Shown here in pieces: positions 11,517 to 19,564 of a stretch of DNA of 64,000 nt. The position numbers and the translations under genes were made by a program. This DNA is from Streptomyces asiaticus (GTDB taxonomy: Bacteria; Actinomycetota; Actinomycetes; Streptomycetales; Streptomycetaceae), in the NCBI RefSeq assembly GCF_018138715.1, contig NZ_JAGSHX010000006.1, positions 9,238,001 to 9,302,000 on the forward strand, in the 5' to 3' direction. How positions within the stretch are numbered: position 1 is the first letter of the stretch; each line of letters opens with the position of its first letter. Under the pieces are notes generated by a model. That model was not told where the DNA came from. It saw nothing but the letters and a program-made list of their open reading frames with translations, and ran no database searches.

Positions 11517-11714
11517 TCAGGAGCCCGTCGCCGTGCCGCCGGGCGGTGGCGGCTCCTCCCCGGAGGTTCCCTGGGCCTGCGGCGGTGGCGGCTCGGTGGC
11601 CGCCAGGGCCGCGGGCGCTCCGCCCGGCTTGCTGTTGACGTAGGTGGTGAGCCGGTGCACCTGACGTTCCAGGGCCCTGATCCGGTCCACGATGTCCTCG
11701 GGCAGGTTCGCCAT
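11517..11714 (-). CDS. Small protein at the end of the tail operon
   Basis: The 65-residue protein starts at an ATG that shares one base with the stop of the hub-like gene (TGATG), so it is translationally coupled to it. Residues 1-30 form an amphipathic helix-prone segment (IVDRIRALERQVHRL) with coiled-coil character, followed by a Pro/Gly/Thr-rich tail. Similar tiny coiled-coil proteins often close phage tail operons next to fibre or hub genes. No family could be recognised, so a structural or assembly role is inferred from position alone. Confidence 0.6.
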   Translation of the reverse strand: MANLPEDIVDRIRALERQVHRLTTYVNSKPGGAPAALAATEPPPPQAQGTSGEEPPPPGGTATGS

Positions 11715-12802
11715 CAGTCTGCCTCCTCCAGATACAGATCGGCGGTCTCCGGACGTCCCCGCTCCGGGGCGGTGACCTTGATGCCGACGACGCGGTAGCG
11801 GGCGTCCAGCCCCTCGGAGAACCACACGTCCTTGATGCGCAGCCGCACGGTCGTGCCGAGCAGCGCGGGCGTGGTGCCCGAGCCGAGGCGGATCCGCACC
11901 GAGGGGATGACCACCGTGCCGCGCAGAGCGGCGAGTTCGGACCGGGCGAACGCGTCGAGCGTCGCCTTGTCGGTGACATTGCTGTGGTCGGACGAGGTGT
12001 CCAGGCGGGGGAACCCGGCCGCGAGGAGATCCTCGGCCACCTGTTCCCCGGACATCACCGGGCCGCCCGCCCCGCCCTCCGGGGTGCCGCCCCTGGCCCG
12101 CGCGGTCGTCCCGCCGCGCGTGGCGTCGCGGGGGAAGGAGTACGACAGCACATCTCCCGGCAGATCCAGCATCACCGGCTGGCTGCCCACCCGGATCGTC
12201 GGAGAGCCCAGCTGGAGCAGCTTCACCCGCCGCCCGGTCACCGGATCCCGGTACACCGCGATGCGGTGCTCGAAACCCGGTTCCATCGCCGCGAGTTGCC
12301 CGATCGCCTCCTCCACCAGGGTCTCGTCACCGTCGCTGTAGGCCACCGTACGGGCCGCGGTGGGGGCCGTCGGCGCGTACTCCACACCGATGTGGCCGCC
12401 CTCGGACCCCTGCATGTAGTCCCACAGCCGGCGGACGATCTCCAGATGGTCGAGCGCGGTGAAGCTCAGATTGGCGCGGATGTAGCGACGGCCCGCGTAG
12501 GAGTCGAACGTGGCCGCCTGAAGCCCGACCGTGGTGAGGCCCCGGTCGTCCGTGGCCGGGGTCAGGGTCCAGACGATGCCACCCCAGCAGACCTCGTCGC
12601 CCCGCTCCAGATAGACGGCGGTGCGCCCCTCCACCAGCTCCCGCACCCGCCGGGCCATCCGGGCGTCGGGCACCGGAAGGGTCGCGGTCAGGGATCCCGG
12701 CTTGCCGAGGTAGTCGTCGTACTCCACCTCTCGCAGGGGCAGCACATCGATGGCCTGGTCGGTGCGCAGATCGGTGAAGACGGCGCGGTAACGGGCGTCC
12801 AC
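11714..12802 (-). CDS. Phage tail hub-like protein (ReqiPepy6 Gp37-like)
   Basis: The 362-residue protein has the general look of Gp37-like/Tal-type tail hub proteins of actinobacterial siphophages. It has an N-terminal beta-rich region (YRAVFTDLRTD, GSLTATLPVP, CWGGIVWTL), a middle segment with FDSYAGRRYI and a long LEIVRRLWDYMQ helix, and a C-terminal beta domain. Such proteins form the tail tip beneath the distal tail ring. No peptidoglycan hydrolase motif is visible, so any cell-wall cutting must come from elsewhere. It lies seven bases downstream of the fibre-like gene and overlaps the small last gene. The family assignment is by motif memory and gene order. Confidence 0.72.
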   Translation of the reverse strand: MDARYRAVFTDLRTDQAIDVLPLREVEYDDYLGKPGSLTATLPVPDARMARRVRELVEGRTAVYLERGDEVCWGGIVWTLTPATDDRGLTTVGLQAATFDSYAGRRYIRANLSFTALDHLEIVRRLWDYMQGSEGGHIGVEYAPTAPTAARTVAYSDGDETLVEEAIGQLAAMEPGFEHRIAVYRDPVTGRRVKLLQLGSPTIRVGSQPVMLDLPGDVLSYSFPRDATRGGTTARARGGTPEGGAGGPVMSGEQVAEDLLAAGFPRLDTSSDHSNVTDKATLDAFARSELAALRGTVVIPSVRIRLGSGTTPALLGTTVRLRIKDVWFSEGLDARYRVVGIKVTAPERGRPETADLYLEEAD

Positions 12803-12808
12803 GGCGCC

Positions 12809-13849
12809 TCACGCCACCGGGTCCACGCGGACGAAGCGGTTGTCGAAGTGCACACGCGTCCCCGCGATCGAGGAACGGTAGGCGGCGGTCGCCGTGTAGA
12901 CGGCGCCCGGGGTGAGGCCCCCCACCGGGAAACAGGTGGAGATCGAGGCCCGCCCGGCACCGTCGAGGATCGCCGCGCGGTCGTCGGACGGGGCGAGCAC
13001 CTCGGTACCGCTCTGCGTCCTGAGCCGGAACGACGTGTATGCGGTGGCGCCCCCGTCGGCGGCCGTGAAGGCGCCGAAGGTGATGGACACCCACCGGGAC
13101 GCCGGGGCGGTGAAGGTGGCGGTGAGCGTGGCGACGGTGTCGGTGAGCATCTCCTGATAGGTGGCTGAGGTGGTGGCTCCCCAGTCCGCCGTGTGCCGCA
13201 GTACGGCGTCCGGGATGTACTTCGCCCACTGGGCGCCGTCCCAGCGCTCCAGCCGGCCGCCCGCGTCGCGGTACTGCCCGGCATACGCCCCGTTGTGCGG
13301 CGCGCCGCCCGCGGCGGGGACGATGCCGCCGAGCGCCGCGGTGTAGCGGCGGCGGTCGGTGATGGCGGAGGCCCAGGTGATGCCCTTGGCCGCGGACGCC
13401 CCGGCGGGGACGGCGATCTCGTAGAGAAGCTCCGCGTTCTTGGGCACGGCCGGGGCGGTGGGGGAGCCGGCCGGGGTGCCCTGGAGGAGTTCCAGGGTGG
13501 CCTCGTACTTGCCGGAGCCGTCGTAGTCGGTGTCGTAGACCCGCACCACGAGCGCGTCCACCCGGGGCAGGCTGGAGTGCCCGTCGGCGACGGTCAGCAG
13601 GGTGTCGGAGTCGACGGTGACCGGATAGCCGCCCTGCGAGCCGGTGGAGGTTCCCGGGATCCACACCTGGCCCGGGGAGAGCTTGGCCTGCATACCGGTG
13701 GCGGTGGTGCCGGTGAGCTGGAGCCCGCCGAACACGCATCCGGCCCGGGTCAGCAGCGGTCCGGCGGACGCCACGCCGAGGCTGACGGCCAGCCGGGTGT
13801 CCTCACGGGTCTGGCCGGTGGGCAGATGCCAGGCGGAACGGACGGTCAT
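12809..13849 (-). CDS. Tail fibre-like / minor tail protein
   Basis: The 346-residue beta-rich protein begins with SAWHLPTGQTREDTRLAVSL. Its first 150 residues resemble the shared N-terminal part of actinophage minor tail or fibre proteins (GTTATGMQAKLSPGQVWIPG; DALVVRVYDTDYDG). The C-terminal 150 residues are rich in Thr, Ala and Ser and beta-strand patterns, as expected for a trimeric surface-binding domain. It lies between the distal-tail and hub genes, the usual place for a receptor-binding component. If the locus makes a particle, the C-terminus is the best candidate for its target-recognition part. The enzyme-like region is absent. Confidence 0.65.
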   Translation of the reverse strand: MTVRSAWHLPTGQTREDTRLAVSLGVASAGPLLTRAGCVFGGLQLTGTTATGMQAKLSPGQVWIPGTSTGSQGGYPVTVDSDTLLTVADGHSSLPRVDALVVRVYDTDYDGSGKYEATLELLQGTPAGSPTAPAVPKNAELLYEIAVPAGASAAKGITWASAITDRRRYTAALGGIVPAAGGAPHNGAYAGQYRDAGGRLERWDGAQWAKYIPDAVLRHTADWGATTSATYQEMLTDTVATLTATFTAPASRWVSITFGAFTAADGGATAYTSFRLRTQSGTEVLAPSDDRAAILDGAGRASISTCFPVGGLTPGAVYTATAAYRSSIAGTRVHFDNRFVRVDPVA

Positions 13850-13934
13850 AAGACGGCTCCCACGGTCATCGGAGAACTCCTTGTGGTCGTACGGGGGTTG
13901 AGGATCGGAACGGATGATGGGGCGGCACGGCGCG

Positions 13935-14843
13935 TCACCACTCGGCGCGGCGCCAGGTGATCGTGGCGGTGGCTCCCTCCCCTCCCGACGCCGCGCGGAA
14001 GGACAGCTGCGAGGTCCCGGACGGCAGGGTGAACGACTCCTCCGGGGCGCTGCCCGGTGTGGCGGTGTGGCGGCGCGACGCGGTGCCGTTGAACATCACG
14101 GTCCCCTCGGCGGTGTCGACGACCAGTTCGTCGTCCGGAGCGAGGGTGATCGCGTACTCCAGCCAGTCGCCGCTGGTCCGGTTGGCCAGCCGCGGCCGGG
14201 TGCACGGCCCGGTGAAGGTGATCACCGGATGGGCGGGTGCGCTGCCGTCGTTCTCCACCGCGAGATCGCCGGTGGAACCGGGCGCGCCCCAGGCCAGCGG
14301 CCAGCTGAGCGGCCAGGTCAGCCCCGCCTCCGGCTGGGGGAGCCCGGCGGTGTCCCGCCGCCCCACCGCCTCGTAGCGGCGTGGATCGCTCGCCTTCCAC
14401 TGAAGCGTCATCTTGGCGAGGCGGCTCGCGGCGAACTGCCGGTCGGTGGGGACCACGCGCTGGGTGATCCGGGCCCGTACGGCCAGCGTCTCGCCGTGCA
14501 GGCGTACGGCCAGCCACTCCTCCTCGTCGCGTACGGCGGTGGCGGCACGCAGCGTGCGCAGCGCGTCCCGCACGGCCTCCGGCCCGGCGTCCGGGTCCGG
14601 GGCGAACCACACCTGCGCGGTGACCGTACGGGCCTGTGCCCACTGTGAGCCGGGCCAGCCGCCGTGCCCGACGGGGCGGTCCGCGTCGGAGGTGTCCAGC
14701 GCGGGCAACTCCTCCCAGCCGGTGAGCCCTTCGGCGGCGATCCAGTAGTCGGTGCCGGGGCCCATCAGCAGCCCCGCCCACTGCACCTGCCCATCGGTGG
14801 TGATGAGCGGCCCCGGCTCGGTGGTGGTGGTCTCGTCCGCCAT
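13935..14843 (-). CDS. Distal tail (Dit-like) protein
   Basis: The protein has 302 residues. It contains the phage tail family pattern seen in distal tail proteins: a WAGLLMGPGTDYWI strand, a DRPVGHGGWPGSQWA loop followed by a long VTAQVWFAP beta strand, and MTLQWKASDPRRY closing the N-terminal half. The C-terminal half is a galectin-like beta region ending in LSFRAASGGEGATATITWRR. In siphovirus tails this ring connects the tube to the tip. It starts one base after the tape-measure stop. The fold call rests on pattern recognition and on its place directly after the tape-measure gene. Confidence 0.75.
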   Translation of the reverse strand: MADETTTTEPGPLITTDGQVQWAGLLMGPGTDYWIAAEGLTGWEELPALDTSDADRPVGHGGWPGSQWAQARTVTAQVWFAPDPDAGPEAVRDALRTLRAATAVRDEEEWLAVRLHGETLAVRARITQRVVPTDRQFAASRLAKMTLQWKASDPRRYEAVGRRDTAGLPQPEAGLTWPLSWPLAWGAPGSTGDLAVENDGSAPAHPVITFTGPCTRPRLANRTSGDWLEYAITLAPDDELVVDTAEGTVMFNGTASRRHTATPGSAPEESFTLPSGTSQLSFRAASGGEGATATITWRRAEW

Positions 14844-14844
14844 G

Positions 14845-16002
14845 TCACCCCCTCGCCTTCATCAGGAACATCAGATCCTCGGCGGTCTGCCGGGCGCTGC
14901 CGCCCGGGGCTTCGTGGTAGTGCTCGATGACGAATCCGCCACCCGGCCTGCCGGATCCCGCCAGGGCGGGCGCGGGCCCGGTGCGGGCGAGCAGGGTGCT
15001 CAGCCGGTTCAGCGGCAGCACGGCTTCGGCCTGCCCGCCCTCGGCGAGCAGCGCGAGCGTGCCGCCGGGGCGCGGCAGCACGATGCCGCCTTGGGCGAGC
15101 GTGGGAATGGTGGGGATGTTGACTCCGAACGACTGGCCACCGATCCCCGGCACCCAGGAGGGCACCGAGACCTTGACCCGGTTCAGTGCGCCGATCGCCC
15201 GGTTGACCAGCCCGATCACCCCGTTGAGCGGCCCGCGCACGGCCCCGAGTACGGCGCTGAAGGCACCCCGGACGATGCCCGCCAGCCCGTTGAAGGCGCG
15301 CTGGATGCCGTTGCGGGCGGAGCGGAAGGCGCCCGGGATCCGCTCCGAGAAGAAGGACAGCAGGGGCCGGACCACGGCCATGATGGCGTGGATGACCGTG
15401 GTGATGATGGTCTTGTAGATGTTGAAGTACGTCTTCACGACGGTCCAGATGACCTTCAGCACGACCGTGAACGCCGTCTTGATGCCGTTCCAGGTCGTCT
15501 GCACCACTTGTTTCGCCACGCGCATGGTGGAGCCGATGACCTGACCGATGATCTTGAAGGCGGCCTGGACGATGCGCTGGACGGTCTTGGACTGCATCGC
15601 CATGTCGACGAGCTTCATGATCAACGGCATCAGCAGCGCCATGATGGCACCGAACACGTTTGACTTCATGGCGGTGTTCAGGCCCTTCTGGGCCGTGGTC
15701 ACCCCCTGGAGCCCCGTCTTCATCCGCCCCATCAGCCCACCCCCGGTCGCCGCGCTGCGGCCGGCGGTGGTCATGGAGCGGCCGCTCTTGGCCACGCTGC
15801 GTTCGGCGGCGTTGGCTTCCCGCTGGAGGGTGCGCATCGAGTTGGCCGACTTGTCCACGTCGCCTTTGATACGGCCCACGGCGCCGGATGCCCCGGTGAC
15901 GGAGCCACGCAATCTGGCGACGGTGGTATCGGCCTGGCGAGCCGAGGTCGTGAAGTTCCGCAGGGCGCCGACGGACGACCGCAGGGCGGCCACGAGCGAC
16001 AT
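14845..16002 (-). CDS. Short tape-measure protein
   Basis: The protein has 385 residues. An N-terminal helical, Ser/Arg/Thr-rich part (1-115) precedes a hydrophobic central block (about 120-250, including SNVFGAIMALLMPLIMKLVDMAM and many I/V/A-rich helices). The C-terminus has the GxxAEAVLPL(N/S)RL segment found at the end of many tape-measure proteins. Tape-measure length sets tail length at roughly 1.5 angstrom per residue, so the tail would be near 60 nm, short for a siphovirus. A GAGGAGG ribosome site precedes the ATG. The preceding coiled-coil gene may supply part of the same function. Confidence 0.8.
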   Translation of the reverse strand: MSLVAALRSSVGALRNFTTSARQADTTVARLRGSVTGASGAVGRIKGDVDKSANSMRTLQREANAAERSVAKSGRSMTTAGRSAATGGGLMGRMKTGLQGVTTAQKGLNTAMKSNVFGAIMALLMPLIMKLVDMAMQSKTVQRIVQAAFKIIGQVIGSTMRVAKQVVQTTWNGIKTAFTVVLKVIWTVVKTYFNIYKTIITTVIHAIMAVVRPLLSFFSERIPGAFRSARNGIQRAFNGLAGIVRGAFSAVLGAVRGPLNGVIGLVNRAIGALNRVKVSVPSWVPGIGGQSFGVNIPTIPTLAQGGIVLPRPGGTLALLAEGGQAEAVLPLNRLSTLLARTGPAPALAGSGRPGGGFVIEHYHEAPGGSARQTAEDLMFLMKARG

Positions 16003-16035
16003 AGCATCCTCCTCGGTGTGGGGACAGCGGCGGCT

Positions 16036-16746
16036 TCAGGAGCCGAGCTCACGCCGAAGGCTCGCTGCCCGCGTTTCCAGCGTCCGCATCCCCTGGTCCA
16101 GGGCGTTCATATGGTTGGCGGTCTCCCGGCGCGCGTTTCTCGCCTCCTGCTCGGCCTCAGCGATGCGATGCGCTGCCGACACGACTCGCTGCCGGCTGCC
16201 TTCGACCCTCCCCCGGGCCTGCTGGGCGCGGCGCTCCGCCCCCTCCAGCGCACGCAACTCCCGGCTCAGCGCCTCCTCGCGGAAGCGTTGCTCGCCGTAC
16301 AGCGCGCGGCTGTCGCCGCCGGGCTGGGCGCGGCGCTGCCGGGTCTCCTCCAGATCGCGGCGGCGTTGTTCGACCCGCTCCAACTGCTCCTGGAAGCGGT
16401 TCACGGCGCCTTGCAGACGGTCGGTGCGCTGCTCCAGCTTCCGCTCGGCGACCTGCAACCGCTCATCGGGTGTGCGCATATGGCGCCATGTCACGACCTG
16501 GCGGCCGGCCACGAACACCCCGGTCTCATCGACCTTCAGCAGGGAGAACCCGATGCTCGCCGCGGCCACGGCCCCCAGGACGCCGGCCAGATCGGACTTG
16601 CCGAGCCCCGGCTCGACCTTCGGCTTGTAGGTCTGTATGAAGTTGTCCTGCTCCTTCTGCATGCGCGCGAGCGTGGCGTTGGTGGCCGTCATGCCCCGCT
16701 TCAGCTGGACAATGGCCGTCTCGGTGCGCTCTTGGAAATCGCTCAC
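16036..16746 (-). CDS. Coiled-coil tail-cluster protein, possibly split tape-measure part
   Basis: The 236-residue protein starts at GTG with an AGGAGG site. Residues 1-85 include a small hydrophobic patch (LAGVLGAVAAASIGFSLL), and residues 90-236 are almost entirely charged coiled coil (repeated E/R/Q/A heptads such as LERVEQRRRDLEETRQ). No catalytic motif is present. It lies between the chaperone genes and the short tape-measure protein, where phages normally have only one large tape-measure gene. It may therefore be the other half of a split tape measure, or an assembly scaffold. No named family could be recognised. Confidence 0.6.
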   Translation of the reverse strand: MSDFQERTETAIVQLKRGMTATNATLARMQKEQDNFIQTYKPKVEPGLGKSDLAGVLGAVAAASIGFSLLKVDETGVFVAGRQVVTWRHMRTPDERLQVAERKLEQRTDRLQGAVNRFQEQLERVEQRRRDLEETRQRRAQPGGDSRALYGEQRFREEALSRELRALEGAERRAQQARGRVEGSRQRVVSAAHRIAEAEQEARNARRETANHMNALDQGMRTLETRAASLRRELGS

Positions 16747-16764
16747 GTACCCTCCTGCGCGGGG

Positions 16765-17459
16765 TCACCCGAAGAACCGCGCCAACTCCGCCGCCGTCGG
16801 CGCGTGGTCGTCGGCGGCTCGGTCGGCGGGCGGGCCGTCGGACATGTCGGTTGCCCCCGGGCGGGGTACCGGCACCGGTGCCTCCGGCGGGTCCGCGTAT
16901 TCGTCCCGGTTGGCCGACGCGAACATCCAGTTGGCGATCGCCAAGTGGTCCACGACCGCCGCCAGCAGATGGTCCGTCAGCCCCCACTCCGCGGCCTCGC
17001 CCTCCCGCGCCCGGACGAACGACGAGTCCGGTGGAAGGTGGCGCACCAGGACCGCCAGGCGCCGCGAGGACAGCGTCTCGCGGTGCCAGTCGAGCAGGTC
17101 GACGCCGTAGTACCGCAGCAGATCGGCCTCCAGAGCCTCGGCGTGCTCCTCCACGAGCGCGCCGAGGCTCAGCCTTCCCCCACGCCGAGCCCGGTGTCCT
17201 GGCCGTACGCCTCGAGGATGGCGGCGATGTCCTGCACGCTCACTTCGTGTTGGCACAGCCGCTGGTAGCTCTCCTCGCCCATGAGGAGGGCGAGCAGTCC
17301 GTCCAGGTCGTTGTCCTTCAGCTCGGCCAGCGCGTGCGCCGAGCGGCGGGGGATCTCGGTGGGCAGGGAGAACGTCTCCCCGTCCACCTCGAAGTCCCAG
17401 GTCAGGCCGAGCGCCTCCAAGCGCTGGGCGCGGGCGGCGTTGACGTTGAACGTGGCCAT
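16765..17459 (-). CDS. Tail assembly chaperone, -1 frameshift fusion (gpG-gpT type)
   Basis: The upstream frame (17459-17169) and an overlapping frame ending at 16765 are related by exactly -1. A slippery G GGG GAA heptamer sits near the end of the first frame. Slippage after GVGE continues as RLSLGALVEEHAEALEADLL, giving a protein of about 231 residues: 95 shared residues plus a 136-residue extension containing LLRYYGVDLLDW. This is the standard layout of siphovirus tail chaperones, where a minority fusion product binds tube subunits and the tape measure. The extension has no good start codon of its own, which supports frameshifting. The coding structure is seen directly; frameshifting itself is inferred. 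Confidence 0.82.
17169..17459 (-). CDS. Tail assembly chaperone, short form (gpG type)
   Basis: The unshifted 96-residue product starts MATFNVNAARAQRL and is largely acidic and helical (LKDNDLDGLLALLMGE, VQDIAAILEAYGQ). It lies directly after the tail tube gene and before the coiled-coil and tape-measure genes, the conserved place for the abundant chaperone that protects the tape measure during tail assembly. Its last codons carry the slippery site that produces the longer fusion. Its size and acidity agree with the family. It would not be part of the finished particle. Confidence 0.82.
   Translation of the reverse strand: MATFNVNAARAQRLEALGLTWDFEVDGETFSLPTEIPRRSAHALAELKDNDLDGLLALLMGEESYQRLCQHEVSVQDIAAILEAYGQDTGLGVGEG
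17175..17181 (-). promoter_or_regulatory. Programmed -1 ribosomal frameshift site (GGGGGAA)
   Basis: On the minus strand the 0-frame codons GTG GGG GAA form the X XXY YYZ heptamer G GGG GAA, four codons including the stop before the end of the short chaperone. Slippage moves GGG/GAA to GGG/GGA and enters the open -1 frame that runs to 16765. Confidence 0.8.
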
Positions 17460-17498
17460 GGCGGCGACTCCTTCGCGATCGACGTGGCGGGGAGGGGG

Positions 17499-18074
17499 TC
17501 AGGATCCGGCGAACGCCGGGTCGTTCATCAGCCAGGTGGCCAGCGGGGTGTCGTTGTCGACGGCCAGTGCCGTGAAGGTGACCCCGAGCCGGACCGCGGC
17601 CGTGCGGGTGAGCTGGAGCTCCTCGGTCTCGGTGACCTGGCCGCGGCGGAGGACGAACCGGTACTTGATGACATCGCCGTCCGCGAACTCCACGCCCAGC
17701 ATCCGCTCGTCCTTCTTCGGCTCGGCGGCGAGTTCGTAGCGGTACACCTTGGACTCGGCCTCCGTCTCCGTCACCACGGCGCCGCCGAAGAAGAACGGCA
17801 GGGTGTCCTCGTTGAGCTGGAGCAGTTGGAACTTCACGGTGAGGTCGCGGTCGGAGTAGACGAAGCGGGCCGGGCTGACCGACTGCCAGGTGTCCACCGG
17901 GTCGATCTTGTCCTTCTTGTTGAACTTGATGCCGTCGGTGGTGGTGTACCCGAGGTCCTTCCAGCCCGTCGCCCAGGCTGTGGAGACATCGGCCGGGACG
18001 GCGGTGCCGAGCGGGGCGGTCAGGATGCGGCCGGTCCCCGCGACACGGATCTCATTGGGGTTCATTCCGGGCAT
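17499..18074 (-). CDS. Major tail tube protein
   Basis: The 191-residue protein has the beta-sandwich pattern of siphovirus tail tube subunits. An early GWKDLGYTTTDGIKF strand-turn is followed by DKIDPVDTWQSVSPARFVYSDRDLTVKFQLLQLNEDT, and later YRYELAAEPKKDERMLGVEF. Homologues form hexameric rings stacked into the tube. The start at 18074 follows an AAGGAG site seven bases upstream; a second ATG four codons in is possible. It lies between the tail-terminator and chaperone genes, exactly the usual order. No sheath gene is adjacent, so the tail is non-contractile. Confidence 0.85.
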   Translation of the reverse strand: MPGMNPNEIRVAGTGRILTAPLGTAVPADVSTAWATGWKDLGYTTTDGIKFNKKDKIDPVDTWQSVSPARFVYSDRDLTVKFQLLQLNEDTLPFFFGGAVVTETEAESKVYRYELAAEPKKDERMLGVEFADGDVIKYRFVLRRGQVTETEELQLTRTAAVRLGVTFTALAVDNDTPLATWLMNDPAFAGS

Positions 18075-18128
18075 GCGATTGCTCCTTGTGGCGTGGTGAT
18101 GAGGGCGAGCGGTCGGCTGGTGCGTGGC

Positions 18129-18536
18129 CTACGCCGGACGGATGGAGAGCCGGGCCGTGGACAGATAGCGGCTGGCCGCGGCGTGCTGGTAGTCGGGCAG
18201 CCACCGGGGGCCGTCCACCTCGGAGACATCGGTGACACAGGCGGTGCCGAACGTGGTGCCGCGCACGGTGAACAGCGCCGTCCGGGCGGCCGTGGCGACG
18301 GTGTGGGCCGTGGGCTTGTCCGGGCCGTACACCTCGAGGTCGACCAGCGGCTGGTCCAGATGGATGTCCTCGACCCAGACGCCACCCGCCCGGGAGACCA
18401 GCACGGCCTTCTGCGTTCCGTCGAAGTCCGGCGGGGTCCGGTTGTCCACGAGTACCCCGGCCAGTTCGGGGCGGTTCTTCAGATGCTCGACGACGAGGCG
18501 TTCGACGTCGGGAAAGATCACCAAGGGCTCGGTCAT
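18129..18536 (-). CDS. Tail terminator / completion-like protein
   Basis: The 135-residue protein begins MTEPLVIFPDVERLVVEHLK, a helix typical of phage tail terminator proteins. Beta segments follow (VLVDNRTPPDF, AVLVSRAGGVWVEDIHLDQPLVDLEVYG), then a helix with TVATAARTALFTVRG. Terminators cap the growing tube and, in a virion, join it to the head. The start has an AGGAG site five bases upstream. Its presence without any head or portal gene suggests a stand-alone tail whose upper end is closed by this protein. The assignment relies on fold pattern plus position upstream of the tube gene. Confidence 0.72.
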   Translation of the reverse strand: MTEPLVIFPDVERLVVEHLKNRPELAGVLVDNRTPPDFDGTQKAVLVSRAGGVWVEDIHLDQPLVDLEVYGPDKPTAHTVATAARTALFTVRGTTFGTACVTDVSEVDGPRWLPDYQHAAASRYLSTARLSIRPA

Positions 18537-18578
18537 GCGCGCACTCCTTGCTGTGGTCAGGGGCTGCGCACAGCGAAA

Positions 18579-18621
18579 AGCGGCGGGGCCGTGGCCCTCC
18601 AGGGGGCACAGCTCCGCCGCT
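18579..18621 (-). terminator. GC-rich hairpin with T-run between the regulator genes and the tail structural genes
   Basis: Reading the minus strand, AGCGGCGG (18621-18614) pairs with CCGCCGCT (18586-18579), followed by a short T-run, inside the 165-bp gap ahead of the tail-terminator gene. It may stop or attenuate transcription between the two leading genes and the structural module. Confidence 0.55.
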
Positions 18622-18622
18622 G

Positions 18623-18666
18623 GCATCAAGTGTGATGCACCGGACGCCCATTGACAACCACTTGTC
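18623..18666. promoter_or_regulatory. Two adjacent palindromes, candidate operators of the tail cluster
   Basis: GCATCA-AGTG-TGATGC at 18623-18638 and GACAA-CCAC-TTGTC at 18653-18666 lie between the small HTH gene and the tail-terminator gene. Both are exact inverted repeats suited to a small dimeric DNA-binding protein. The binding role is inferred. Confidence 0.45.
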
Positions 18667-18701
18667 GTCACTTATGCCGAGATGACCATGGGCCCCGCAG
18701 G

Positions 18702-18899
18702 TCACGTACGTCGTCGTGTGGCCCGCTCGGCCGCGAACACATCCTCCAGCCGATAGAGGAACGCCTTGCCCTGACGCCCCGCGGGCCGCAGATGCTTCAG
18801 CTGCACCCACTTGCGGATGGTGGCCGGGGTGACGCCCACCTCCACGGCGGCCACGGCGGCGGTCAGCAACGGATACTCGGGTGCCTGTGTGGTCCTCAT
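18702..18899 (-). CDS. Small HTH DNA-binding protein (MerR/excisionase/BldC-like)
   Basis: The 65-residue protein carries a winged-helix HTH: YPLLTAAVAAVEVGVTPATIRKWVQLKHLRPAG, then a wing with KAFLYRLEDV. This is the layout of excisionase and BldC-like proteins. The ATG overlaps the stop of the upstream zinc-ribbon gene (ATGA), so the two are co-translated. Standing just ahead of the tail genes and next to two palindromes, it is the best candidate regulator of the tail locus. No integrase accompanies it, so an excisionase role is unlikely. Confidence 0.75.
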   Translation of the reverse strand: MRTTQAPEYPLLTAAVAAVEVGVTPATIRKWVQLKHLRPAGRQGKAFLYRLEDVFAAERATRRRT

Positions 18900-19564
18900 C
18901 GGCTCACCGCCACGACCGTGGAACCTTCGTCCAGGGCGGCGGTGATCTCCTCCAGGGCGAGCGCGCCACCGGCCACCAGCTCCGCCCACTCGCCCTCCGG
19001 CCAGGAGTGCCGATGCGCCCGGTCCGCGTGGCAGCCGCACGCGGTGTGCGGGCAGCGGCAGCCGGGGTTGATGCACAGCACCGCCCGGCGCAGCGGAAAG
19101 GCCCGCAGCGAGACCGAGGCGCACAGCGGGCACCGGCCGCTCAGCCGGACCACGGGCTCGGCGTCCCCGAGCGCGCCCGCGCAGCGCCGCGCCATTCCGC
19201 TGATCTCGTCCAGCAGATGGCGCATCAGCAACGGGTCGGCCTCGACTCGTTCCAGCAGCCCCGCGAGACGGGCCAGTCTGACCTCGACCGTGCCCCTGCC
19301 CGTGGGCGGCAGCCCGAGCCGGTCGTGGACGGCCTCCTCCAGCTCCACGACGCCGTCGGTGATGTCGCGTACGGTGTCGGAGACCCGCAGGCGCAACGGC
19401 TCCGAGGGCCCGCGGCGGTCGGTGCCTCCCCGCTGCCGACCGAGGCCGGGGCGGTGCGGGGAGGGCGTCAACTCCGCCTGGAGCTCGGGGAACTGCCGTA
19501 TCAGGACGGTGATCCAGTGGCTCGCTCTGATGCGGTCAGGATGCGCAAGTGCGTCATTGCTCAA
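18896..19564 (-). CDS. Zinc-ribbon protein heading the tail cluster, function unknown
   Basis: The protein has about 222 residues, read from a TTG start (the only plausible start near the frame's beginning, preceded by a G-rich tract). The N-terminal 140 residues are helical (ITVLIRQFPELQAEL; VELEEAVHDRLGLP). A cysteine cluster follows (CPLCASVSLRAF, then CINPGCRCPHTACGCH), consistent with one or two zinc sites, and then a helical tail. It overlaps the small HTH gene by four bases. Proteins of this type occur near phage-like regulators in Streptomyces, but no function is recognised. A nucleic-acid-binding role is a guess from the Cys pattern. Confidence 0.7.
   Translation of the reverse strand: MSNDALAHPDRIRASHWITVLIRQFPELQAELTPSPHRPGLGRQRGGTDRRGPSEPLRLRVSDTVRDITDGVVELEEAVHDRLGLPPTGRGTVEVRLARLAGLLERVEADPLLMRHLLDEISGMARRCAGALGDAEPVVRLSGRCPLCASVSLRAFPLRRAVLCINPGCRCPHTACGCHADRAHRHSWPEGEWAELVAGGALALEEITAALDEGSTVVAVSR

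What the first reader, a model, noticed from the sequence alone, without database searches (positions are those of the whole stretch)
11517..19564. Stand-alone non-contractile tail module: possible phage-tail-like particle
Terminator, tube, frameshifting chaperone, short tape measure, distal tail, fibre and hub genes are in canonical order, headed by regulators. There is no capsid, portal, terminase, sheath, lysis or integrase gene, and intact coupling argues against random decay. It may encode an F-type tailocin or an undescribed tail-derived device.
Basis: partly seen in the sequence, partly recalled or inferred. Interest (0 to 1): 0.8.

Follow-up and report, generated by a model that had tools for sequence, protein, structure and literature searches.

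The report
Headless phage-tail particle in Streptomyces
A soil bacterium carries an intact, actively maintained set of genes for a small headless virus tail, probably used as a protein device against other cells, and one inner part of it is swapped between strains while the rest stays nearly the same.

Summary
Confirmed. Minus strand 11517-19564 encodes terminator, tube, frameshifting chaperone, a coiled-coil protein, 385-aa tape measure, Dit, fibre, hub and small tip protein, headed by two regulator-like genes, inside ordinary chromosome. No head homologue or phage-type endolysin was found in the window; the host's phage head genes found lie megabases away.
It is not decay: 14 of 14 nearest relatives keep eight tail ORFs full length; dN/dS is 0.10-0.24 for seven tail genes (two flanking genes 0.23, 0.30). 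Close relatives occur in 53 of 295 Streptomyces genomes (one of them partial). One branch (types A/B) has an amidase endolysin, a phage-type repressor and, in part, LexA-like boxes, often beside rpoC/rpsL: F-type tailocin anatomy. The window's branch (W, with C) has the tail without such a lysis gene nearby.
New here: the gene between chaperone and tape measure is hypervariable and mosaic (median 31% identity where seven tail neighbours are 89-96%); tape-measure residues 1-60 vary with it; the fibre does not.
Best reading: a domesticated F-type tail particle, without its own lysis genes in this lineage, with a polymorphic tape-measure partner. Function untested. New variant of a known kind.

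The parts
18896..19564 (-). regulator-like protein (222 aa; phrog_1467, function unknown; Cys-rich C-terminal part seen by eye)
   Evidence: recurs beside the module in A, B and part of W; 'regulator' is inferred
18702..18899 (-). small HTH protein (65 aa); its counterpart in L063 matches MerR-like phrog_2474
18129..18536 (-). tail terminator (135 aa)
   Evidence: phrog_123; 14 of 14 relatives intact
17499..18074 (-). tail tube protein (191 aa)
   Evidence: PF25681 1.4e-67
17169..17459 (-). tail assembly chaperone, first frame (96 aa)
   Evidence: phrog_10551
17175..17181 (-). slippery heptamer GGGGGAA for the -1 frameshift
   Evidence: sequence; kept in 84 of 87 distinct TAC1 genes
16765..17217 (-). 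tail assembly chaperone, shifted frame
   Evidence: phrog_3656 1.8e-31
16036..16746 (-). hypervariable coiled-coil protein ('coil', 236 aa), mosaic between strains
14845..16002 (-). short tape measure protein (385 aa); residues 1-60 co-vary with the coil gene
   Evidence: phrog_3981
13935..14843 (-). distal tail protein Dit (302 aa)
   Evidence: PF22768 1.2e-8, phrog_5577 9e-82
12809..13849 (-). tail fibre / receptor-binding candidate (346 aa)
   Evidence: phrog_3398 2e-59; position; 'fibre' is inferred
11714..12802 (-). tail hub (362 aa)
   Evidence: phrog_1885; AF2 model and Foldseek
11517..11714 (-). small tip protein (65 aa), in the position of Attoomi gene 19

Best explanation
A domesticated, headless siphophage tail (F-type tail-like particle). 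SHOWN by sequence: a complete tail parts list with conserved frameshift, under purifying selection, without head genes or a phage-type endolysin nearby, in a lineage whose sister branch has tailocin-type lysis and partly SOS-type signals; and a recombining cassette of the coil gene plus the first 60 residues of the tape measure. INFERRED: hub, Dit and fibre form the tip; tape measure with coil sets a tube of roughly 60-90 nm (rule of about 0.15 nm per residue, recalled); the terminator closes the end that a phage would join to a head; particles stay in the hyphae until the cell dies or is lysed; on contact the tip opens and tape measure plus coil enter the target membrane, killing or altering that cell. 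Because the coil varies while the fibre does not, the strain-specific step is more likely at membrane entry or cargo than at surface binding.
For: Parts list. Eight tail ORFs intact in 14 of 14 relatives. dN/dS medians over 36 pairs of 9 genomes: terminator 0.12, tube 0.19, TAC1 0.10, tape 0.24, Dit 0.17, fibre 0.22, hub 0.16; flanking SDR 0.23 (15 pairs) and GH3 0.30 (10 pairs). Frameshift signal in 84 of 87 TAC1 genes. No head homologues in any module locus, with positive controls. Sister branch: endolysin in 15 of 15 type A loci read far enough and 15 of 16 type B (identity); exact GAACN4GTTC in 12 of 53 repressor/regulator intergenic regions (random windows 1.2) and 12 of 19 internal divergent promoters (random 0.37); upstream of the DnaE-type polymerase gene, as control, 7 of 8. 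The split between lysis-less and other loci has support 98. Mosaic coil.
Against: No expression, particle or killing data. The window's copy has no lysis gene, XRE repressor or exact LexA box of its own, so release is not explained; but endolysin relatives exist elsewhere in the host (C6:8.70, 6.03 and 2.88 Mb), so lysis in trans is possible and 'lysis-independent' is not shown. Wenjunlia (L167) has an Amidase_2 protein 1.7 kb upstream of its terminator. No immunity gene is linked to the variable coil. Regulator 0.29, HTH 0.33 and small tip gene 0.50 show weaker constraint. Five of 14 relatives (L168-L172) lack the regulator pair in the fetched stretch. Two sampled genomes (G008, G223) have the tube in two overlapping or abutting frames, broken or mis-sequenced, and one (L065) keeps only terminator, tube and chaperone. 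The coil model is of low confidence.
Confidence: 0.67

Rival explanations
1. Cytoplasmic tail device acting on the producer's own hyphae (stress or developmental cell death), like the Streptomyces contractile injection systems but without a sheath.
For: No endolysin beside the tail in W and C branches, W shown intact; precedent: S. coelicolor CIS are not released and mediate cell death (PMC10066040, abstract and passages).
Against: Fibre and hub under purifying selection point to a surface receptor; no membrane anchor gene recognised.
Confidence: 0.2
2. Decaying prophage remnant without function.
For: Tail proteins are homologous to those of Streptomyces phages (hub 43-48% in the 20 rows listed of 35); a partial copy (L065) and two tube genes split over two frames (G008, G223) occur elsewhere in the genus.
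Against: Eight tail ORFs intact in 14 of 14 nearest relatives, dN/dS 0.10-0.24, conserved frameshift signal, more than one chromosomal setting.
Confidence: 0.04
3. Helper or satellite module: tails supplied to a head encoded elsewhere (prophage in trans, or gene-transfer agent).
For: The host has phage head genes at C6:2.88-2.90 Mb (terminase, portal) and a portal at C6:0.76 Mb (locus not read).
Against: The 2.88-2.90 Mb locus has its own tube-like gene (23% to this one) and endolysin relative; type A/B modules have their own endolysin.
Confidence: 0.06
4. The coil gene is only a fast-drifting spacer of the tape measure, not a polymorphic functional part.
For: No enzymatic domain; weak tape-measure-like PHROG hits; tape-measure residues 1-60 vary with it.
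Against: Block mosaicism (in one pair 80-96% identity over 125 columns, then 24-44%) is recombination, not simple drift.
Confidence: 0.35

Closest known systems
F-type tailocins (F-pyocin, Listeria monocin, rhizoviticin)
   Same: Headless siphophage tail gene order; hub fold matches the monocin tip; sister branch A/B has endolysin, repressor and partly LexA-like boxes
   Different: Window branch has no linked endolysin; the variable part is the tape-measure partner, not the fibre; killing untested
SV1/Attoomi-type Streptomyces phages
   Same: Hub 43-48%; order tube-TAC-TMP-minor tail-hypothetical-hub-small as in Attoomi genes 12-19
   Different: No head or lysis genes; tape measure 385 versus 1141 aa; tube nearest to another phage, Kromp (36%); extra coil gene
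Streptomyces contractile injection systems (CIS-Sc, SLP)
   Same: Tail-derived, chromosomal; SLP effector Sle1 is tape-measure-related and modular (PMC13277306, abstract seen)
   Different: No sheath or baseplate J here; the host has separate baseplate-J loci at C1:0.15 Mb and C6:8.69 Mb

Membership tests
F-type tailocin | Non-contractile tail genes in phage order, no head genes | tested here: met
F-type tailocin | Linked holin/endolysin lysis cassette | tested here: not met
   no type-A/Kromp-type endolysin in 15 of 15 W loci (window, 14 relatives); L167 has an Amidase_2 protein nearby; present in sister types A/B
F-type tailocin | SOS-linked induction | tested here: inconclusive
   LexA-like boxes enriched in part of A/B; none exact upstream of the regulator in the window and 9 relatives
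F-type tailocin | Kills related bacteria | not testable with these tools
   no experiment
Intact or recent prophage | Terminase, portal, capsid nearby | tested here: not met
   integrase not searched by its own model, none among 20 proteins scanned
Contractile injection system / R-type tailocin | Sheath and baseplate J proteins | tested here: not met
   none among proteins; PF04865 hits in the genome lie elsewhere
Gene transfer agent | Head and packaging genes | tested here: not met
   not beside the tail; heads in trans not excluded

The most novel reading that the evidence does not exclude
A lysis-independent F-type tail device, old and widespread in Streptomyces, whose strain specificity lies in a recombining coil/tape-measure cassette inside the tube: a polymorphic ejected protein that decides which neighbour (or kin) is entered or killed, while the fibre stays constant.
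Probability: 0.3. Interest if true: 0.87.

Novelty: new variant of a known kind. Interest (0 to 1): 0.72.

Why it matters
Nine searches of the held library showed, in the rows listed (several lists were cut), no paper on non-contractile tail modules of Streptomyces, where contractile ones are well studied; preprints and most subscription papers are not held. If particles form, a large antibiotic-producing genus has a second tail-derived weapon or signalling device, with close relatives in 53 of 295 sampled genomes. The swap of a tape-measure partner instead of the fibre would make the little-known action of F-type particles testable with natural strain pairs.

Tried and rejected
Prophage remnant: rejected for this lineage on integrity, dN/dS and lack of head genes. 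A copy at the rpoC-rpsL site of the host: that gap is 337 bp there. Simple vertical descent at that site: only weakly supported, fusA versus tube distances r = 0.28, 7 of 2000 permutations at or above (26 loci), so exchange is common. Viral contigs: 20 stretches matched a pattern, none encoded a relative. Regulator in phages: no tblastn match. Tube against solved structures by sequence: no match. Defence families: only weak SMC-like coiled-coil and HTH matches. Coil in the large protein set: 2 hits, both near-identical alleles. Class-wide sample: 10 of 394 genomes at E 1e-15, nine in the window's genus (its own genome included) and one outside.

Limits. In some searches the ORF before the tape measure was picked by script; at least L039, L178 and L203 look like the wrong gene, so the figure for all types is approximate; the W alleles were printed and read. 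The 16 coil sequences were chosen because they share the motif, so its invariant residues (K71, D73, E74, G76) say nothing about other alleles, several of which lack it. In one search the script labelled most W loci 'A' through a weak tape-measure cross-match; I used the L numbers. The tree is unrooted: the phage rows did not enter it. Two of the 27 tips on its lysis-less side (L180, L202) are on contigs too short to judge lysis. The random control draws windows from the same loci and does not match intergenic composition.
Full report
Observation. On the minus strand of 11517-19564 the genes run regulator-like protein, HTH, terminator, tube, chaperone with frameshift, coil, tape measure, Dit, fibre, hub, small tip protein. 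HMM hits identify terminator, tube, chaperone, tape measure, Dit and hub; the fibre matches a structural family. The hub model (pLDDT 89) has the gp27/VgrG-type fold and matches, among many, the monocin tip. Left of the module are polyketide, glycosyl- and methyltransferase genes, right of it an SDR, a glycosidase, an acetyltransferase, an amidase and a P450: ordinary chromosome, at 9.255 Mb of a 10.1 Mb contig.

Is it a prophage? No. Terminase, portal, protease and capsid proteins of phages Attoomi and Kromp find nothing in the window or in any module locus, but do find portals in two loci with a distant tube (L073, L139; tube 37-38%) and at 2.88-2.90 Mb of the host (L226), where a terminase relative also lies. 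A second portal is at 0.76 Mb; that locus was fetched but not read.

Is it decaying? No. In 14 of 14 nearest relatives (L159-L172) terminator, tube, TAC1, tape measure, Dit, fibre, hub and small gene are full length; the regulator pair is in 9 of 14. Median dN/dS in nine genomes is 0.10-0.24 for seven tail genes, 0.29-0.50 for regulator, HTH and small gene, and 0.23 and 0.30 for two flanking genes. The slippery GGGGGAA is kept in 84 of 87 distinct TAC1 genes. Five of the eight closest relatives keep the SDR neighbour; the other three have different surroundings.

How common? A tube relative is in 87 of 295 Streptomyces genomes; 53, the window's included, are close (51% identity or more over nearly the whole protein). 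Two more, G008 and G223, have a similar tube split over two frames; these were not followed. Around the other 52 close ones I read 20 kb or less: 28 type A, 16 type B, 6 type C, 1 type W, 1 partial (L065) (loci).

Types A and B. They add a divergent XRE repressor (26 of 28 and 14 of 16) and the regulator-like gene (26 and 15). In all 15 type A loci whose downstream DNA was fetched, and in 15 of 16 type B, an Amidase_2 endolysin (phrog_880, 3e-74) accompanies the tail genes; the other 13 type A loci end too early to tell. A two-helix holin-like gene (phrog_4316; the holin family itself only at 0.018) is in the 15 type A loci and in 5 of 16 type B. Type A lies beside rpsL and/or rpoC in 22 of 28 loci, with both flanks seen in the 13 of these read on both sides; type B in 3 of 16 (flanking genes identified). 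In 18 genomes read without a module at that site the rpoC-rpsL gap is 337-1606 bp in 14, 2.9 kb in one with an HTH gene like the module's, and 6.2-9.0 kb in three, filled by another gene set. Exact LexA-like boxes lie in 12 of 53 repressor-regulator intergenic regions (random 1.2; all in type B) and in 12 of 19 divergent promoters inside type A modules (random 0.37; the partial locus L065 is one of the 12); upstream of the DnaE-type polymerase, a presumed SOS gene, 7 of 8. That is F-type tailocin anatomy.

Types W and C. The window's branch and the C branch have the tail without such an endolysin. C lies directly upstream of a DnaE-type polymerase gene in 6 of 6 sampled loci (an ImuB/DinB-like gene follows in L094, the continuation of L043), and has neither regulator-like gene nor repressor in the stretches read; one C-like named locus (L181) lacks the polymerase in its stretch. 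A phage-type endolysin was found in 0 of 15 W loci including the window. Against this: Wenjunlia (L167) has an Amidase_2 protein 1.7 kb upstream of the terminator, the window an Amidase_6 gene 4.6 kb away, and the host has endolysin relatives at 8.70, 6.03 and 2.88 Mb. In an unrooted tree of terminator, tube and TAC1, 27 tips (W, C, Virgisporangium L182, Catenulispora L202, L180) are separated from the other 60, the A/B tips and the partial or cut loci that go with them, with support 98, so the split is old; which state came first is open.

The variable gene. Among nine close genomes median identity is 94-96% for hub, tube, terminator and TAC1 and 89-91% for tape measure, fibre and Dit, but 31% (20-96) for the coil. 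Alleles are mosaics: L159 and L165 agree at 80-96% over the first 125 columns and 24-44% after; L159 and L162 the reverse, 4-48% then 72-88%. The first 30 residues of the tape measure are 40-53% identical to the window in 7 of 8 relatives and 100% in L160, the only one with the window's coil allele; block means beyond residue 60 are 88-99%. In 145 locus pairs of all types with tube identity of 85% or more, coil medians are 30% (48 W pairs, 38 below 50%) and 23% (97 others, 86 below 50%) (some gene picks are doubtful). Sixteen alleles chosen for it share a K-x-D-E-x-G motif; the model shows long helices with a hairpin there, at low confidence (pLDDT 67).

Mechanism. The sequence shows a complete, selected tail and a recombining coil/tape cassette. 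Assembly, release on hyphal death and ejection into a target membrane are inferred. In known Gram-negative tailocins the fibre sets specificity (PMC12090994, passages); here the fibre is 85-97% identical, so a later step is the better candidate.

Known work. F-type tailocins are few: F-pyocin, monocin, rhizoviticin (PMC10811719, passages), and their action is largely unknown (PMC8910223, passages). Tailocins are induced by the SOS response and released by their lysis cassette (PMC7076858, passages). S. coelicolor contractile systems stay in the cytoplasm (PMC10066040, abstract and passages), and the S. lividans effector Sle1 is a modular tape-measure relative (PMC13277306, abstract). The nine searches listed no non-contractile Streptomyces system.

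Noticed in passing
L147, L154, L158 (rpoC-rpsL gap): The rpoC-rpsL gap, the usual site of type A tail modules, holds in three other Streptomyces a different gene set (Crp-family regulator, ~260-305 aa, ~710-770 aa and ~340-530 aa proteins; the two of L147 tested have no NCBIfam match): the site looks like an island hot spot.
   Followed up: partly
G000:C6:8682001-8712000 (L224, L225) and G000:C1:148-152 kb: The host has two further baseplate-J loci; the one at 8.69 Mb has a Phage_base_V spike protein and is followed by an Amidase_2 protein of the same endolysin family as the tail modules' lysis gene.
   Followed up: partly
L038, L040-L044: Type C tail modules lie directly upstream of a DnaE-type polymerase gene with a LexA-like box before it (7 of 8 loci), suggesting a link to the SOS mutasome.
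   Followed up: partly
L045, L046: The tail module is inverted beside rpoC; in L045 the regulator pair is at the other end.
   Followed up: no
L063:11141-12865 and other type A loci: A divergent gene pair sharing an R-R-E-T-x-A-Y/F-T-A-G-W motif flanks a LexA-like box inside type A modules; function unknown.
   Followed up: partly
L065 (G012); G008; G223: A stripped copy with only terminator, tube and chaperone near a chromosome end, and two genomes with the tube gene in two frames: likely decaying relatives or sequencing errors.
   Followed up: no
G000:C6:6025918-6026553 (L228): An endolysin relative 83% identical to that of phage Kromp over 195 residues, read with one stop inside, far from the tail module.
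   Followed up: no
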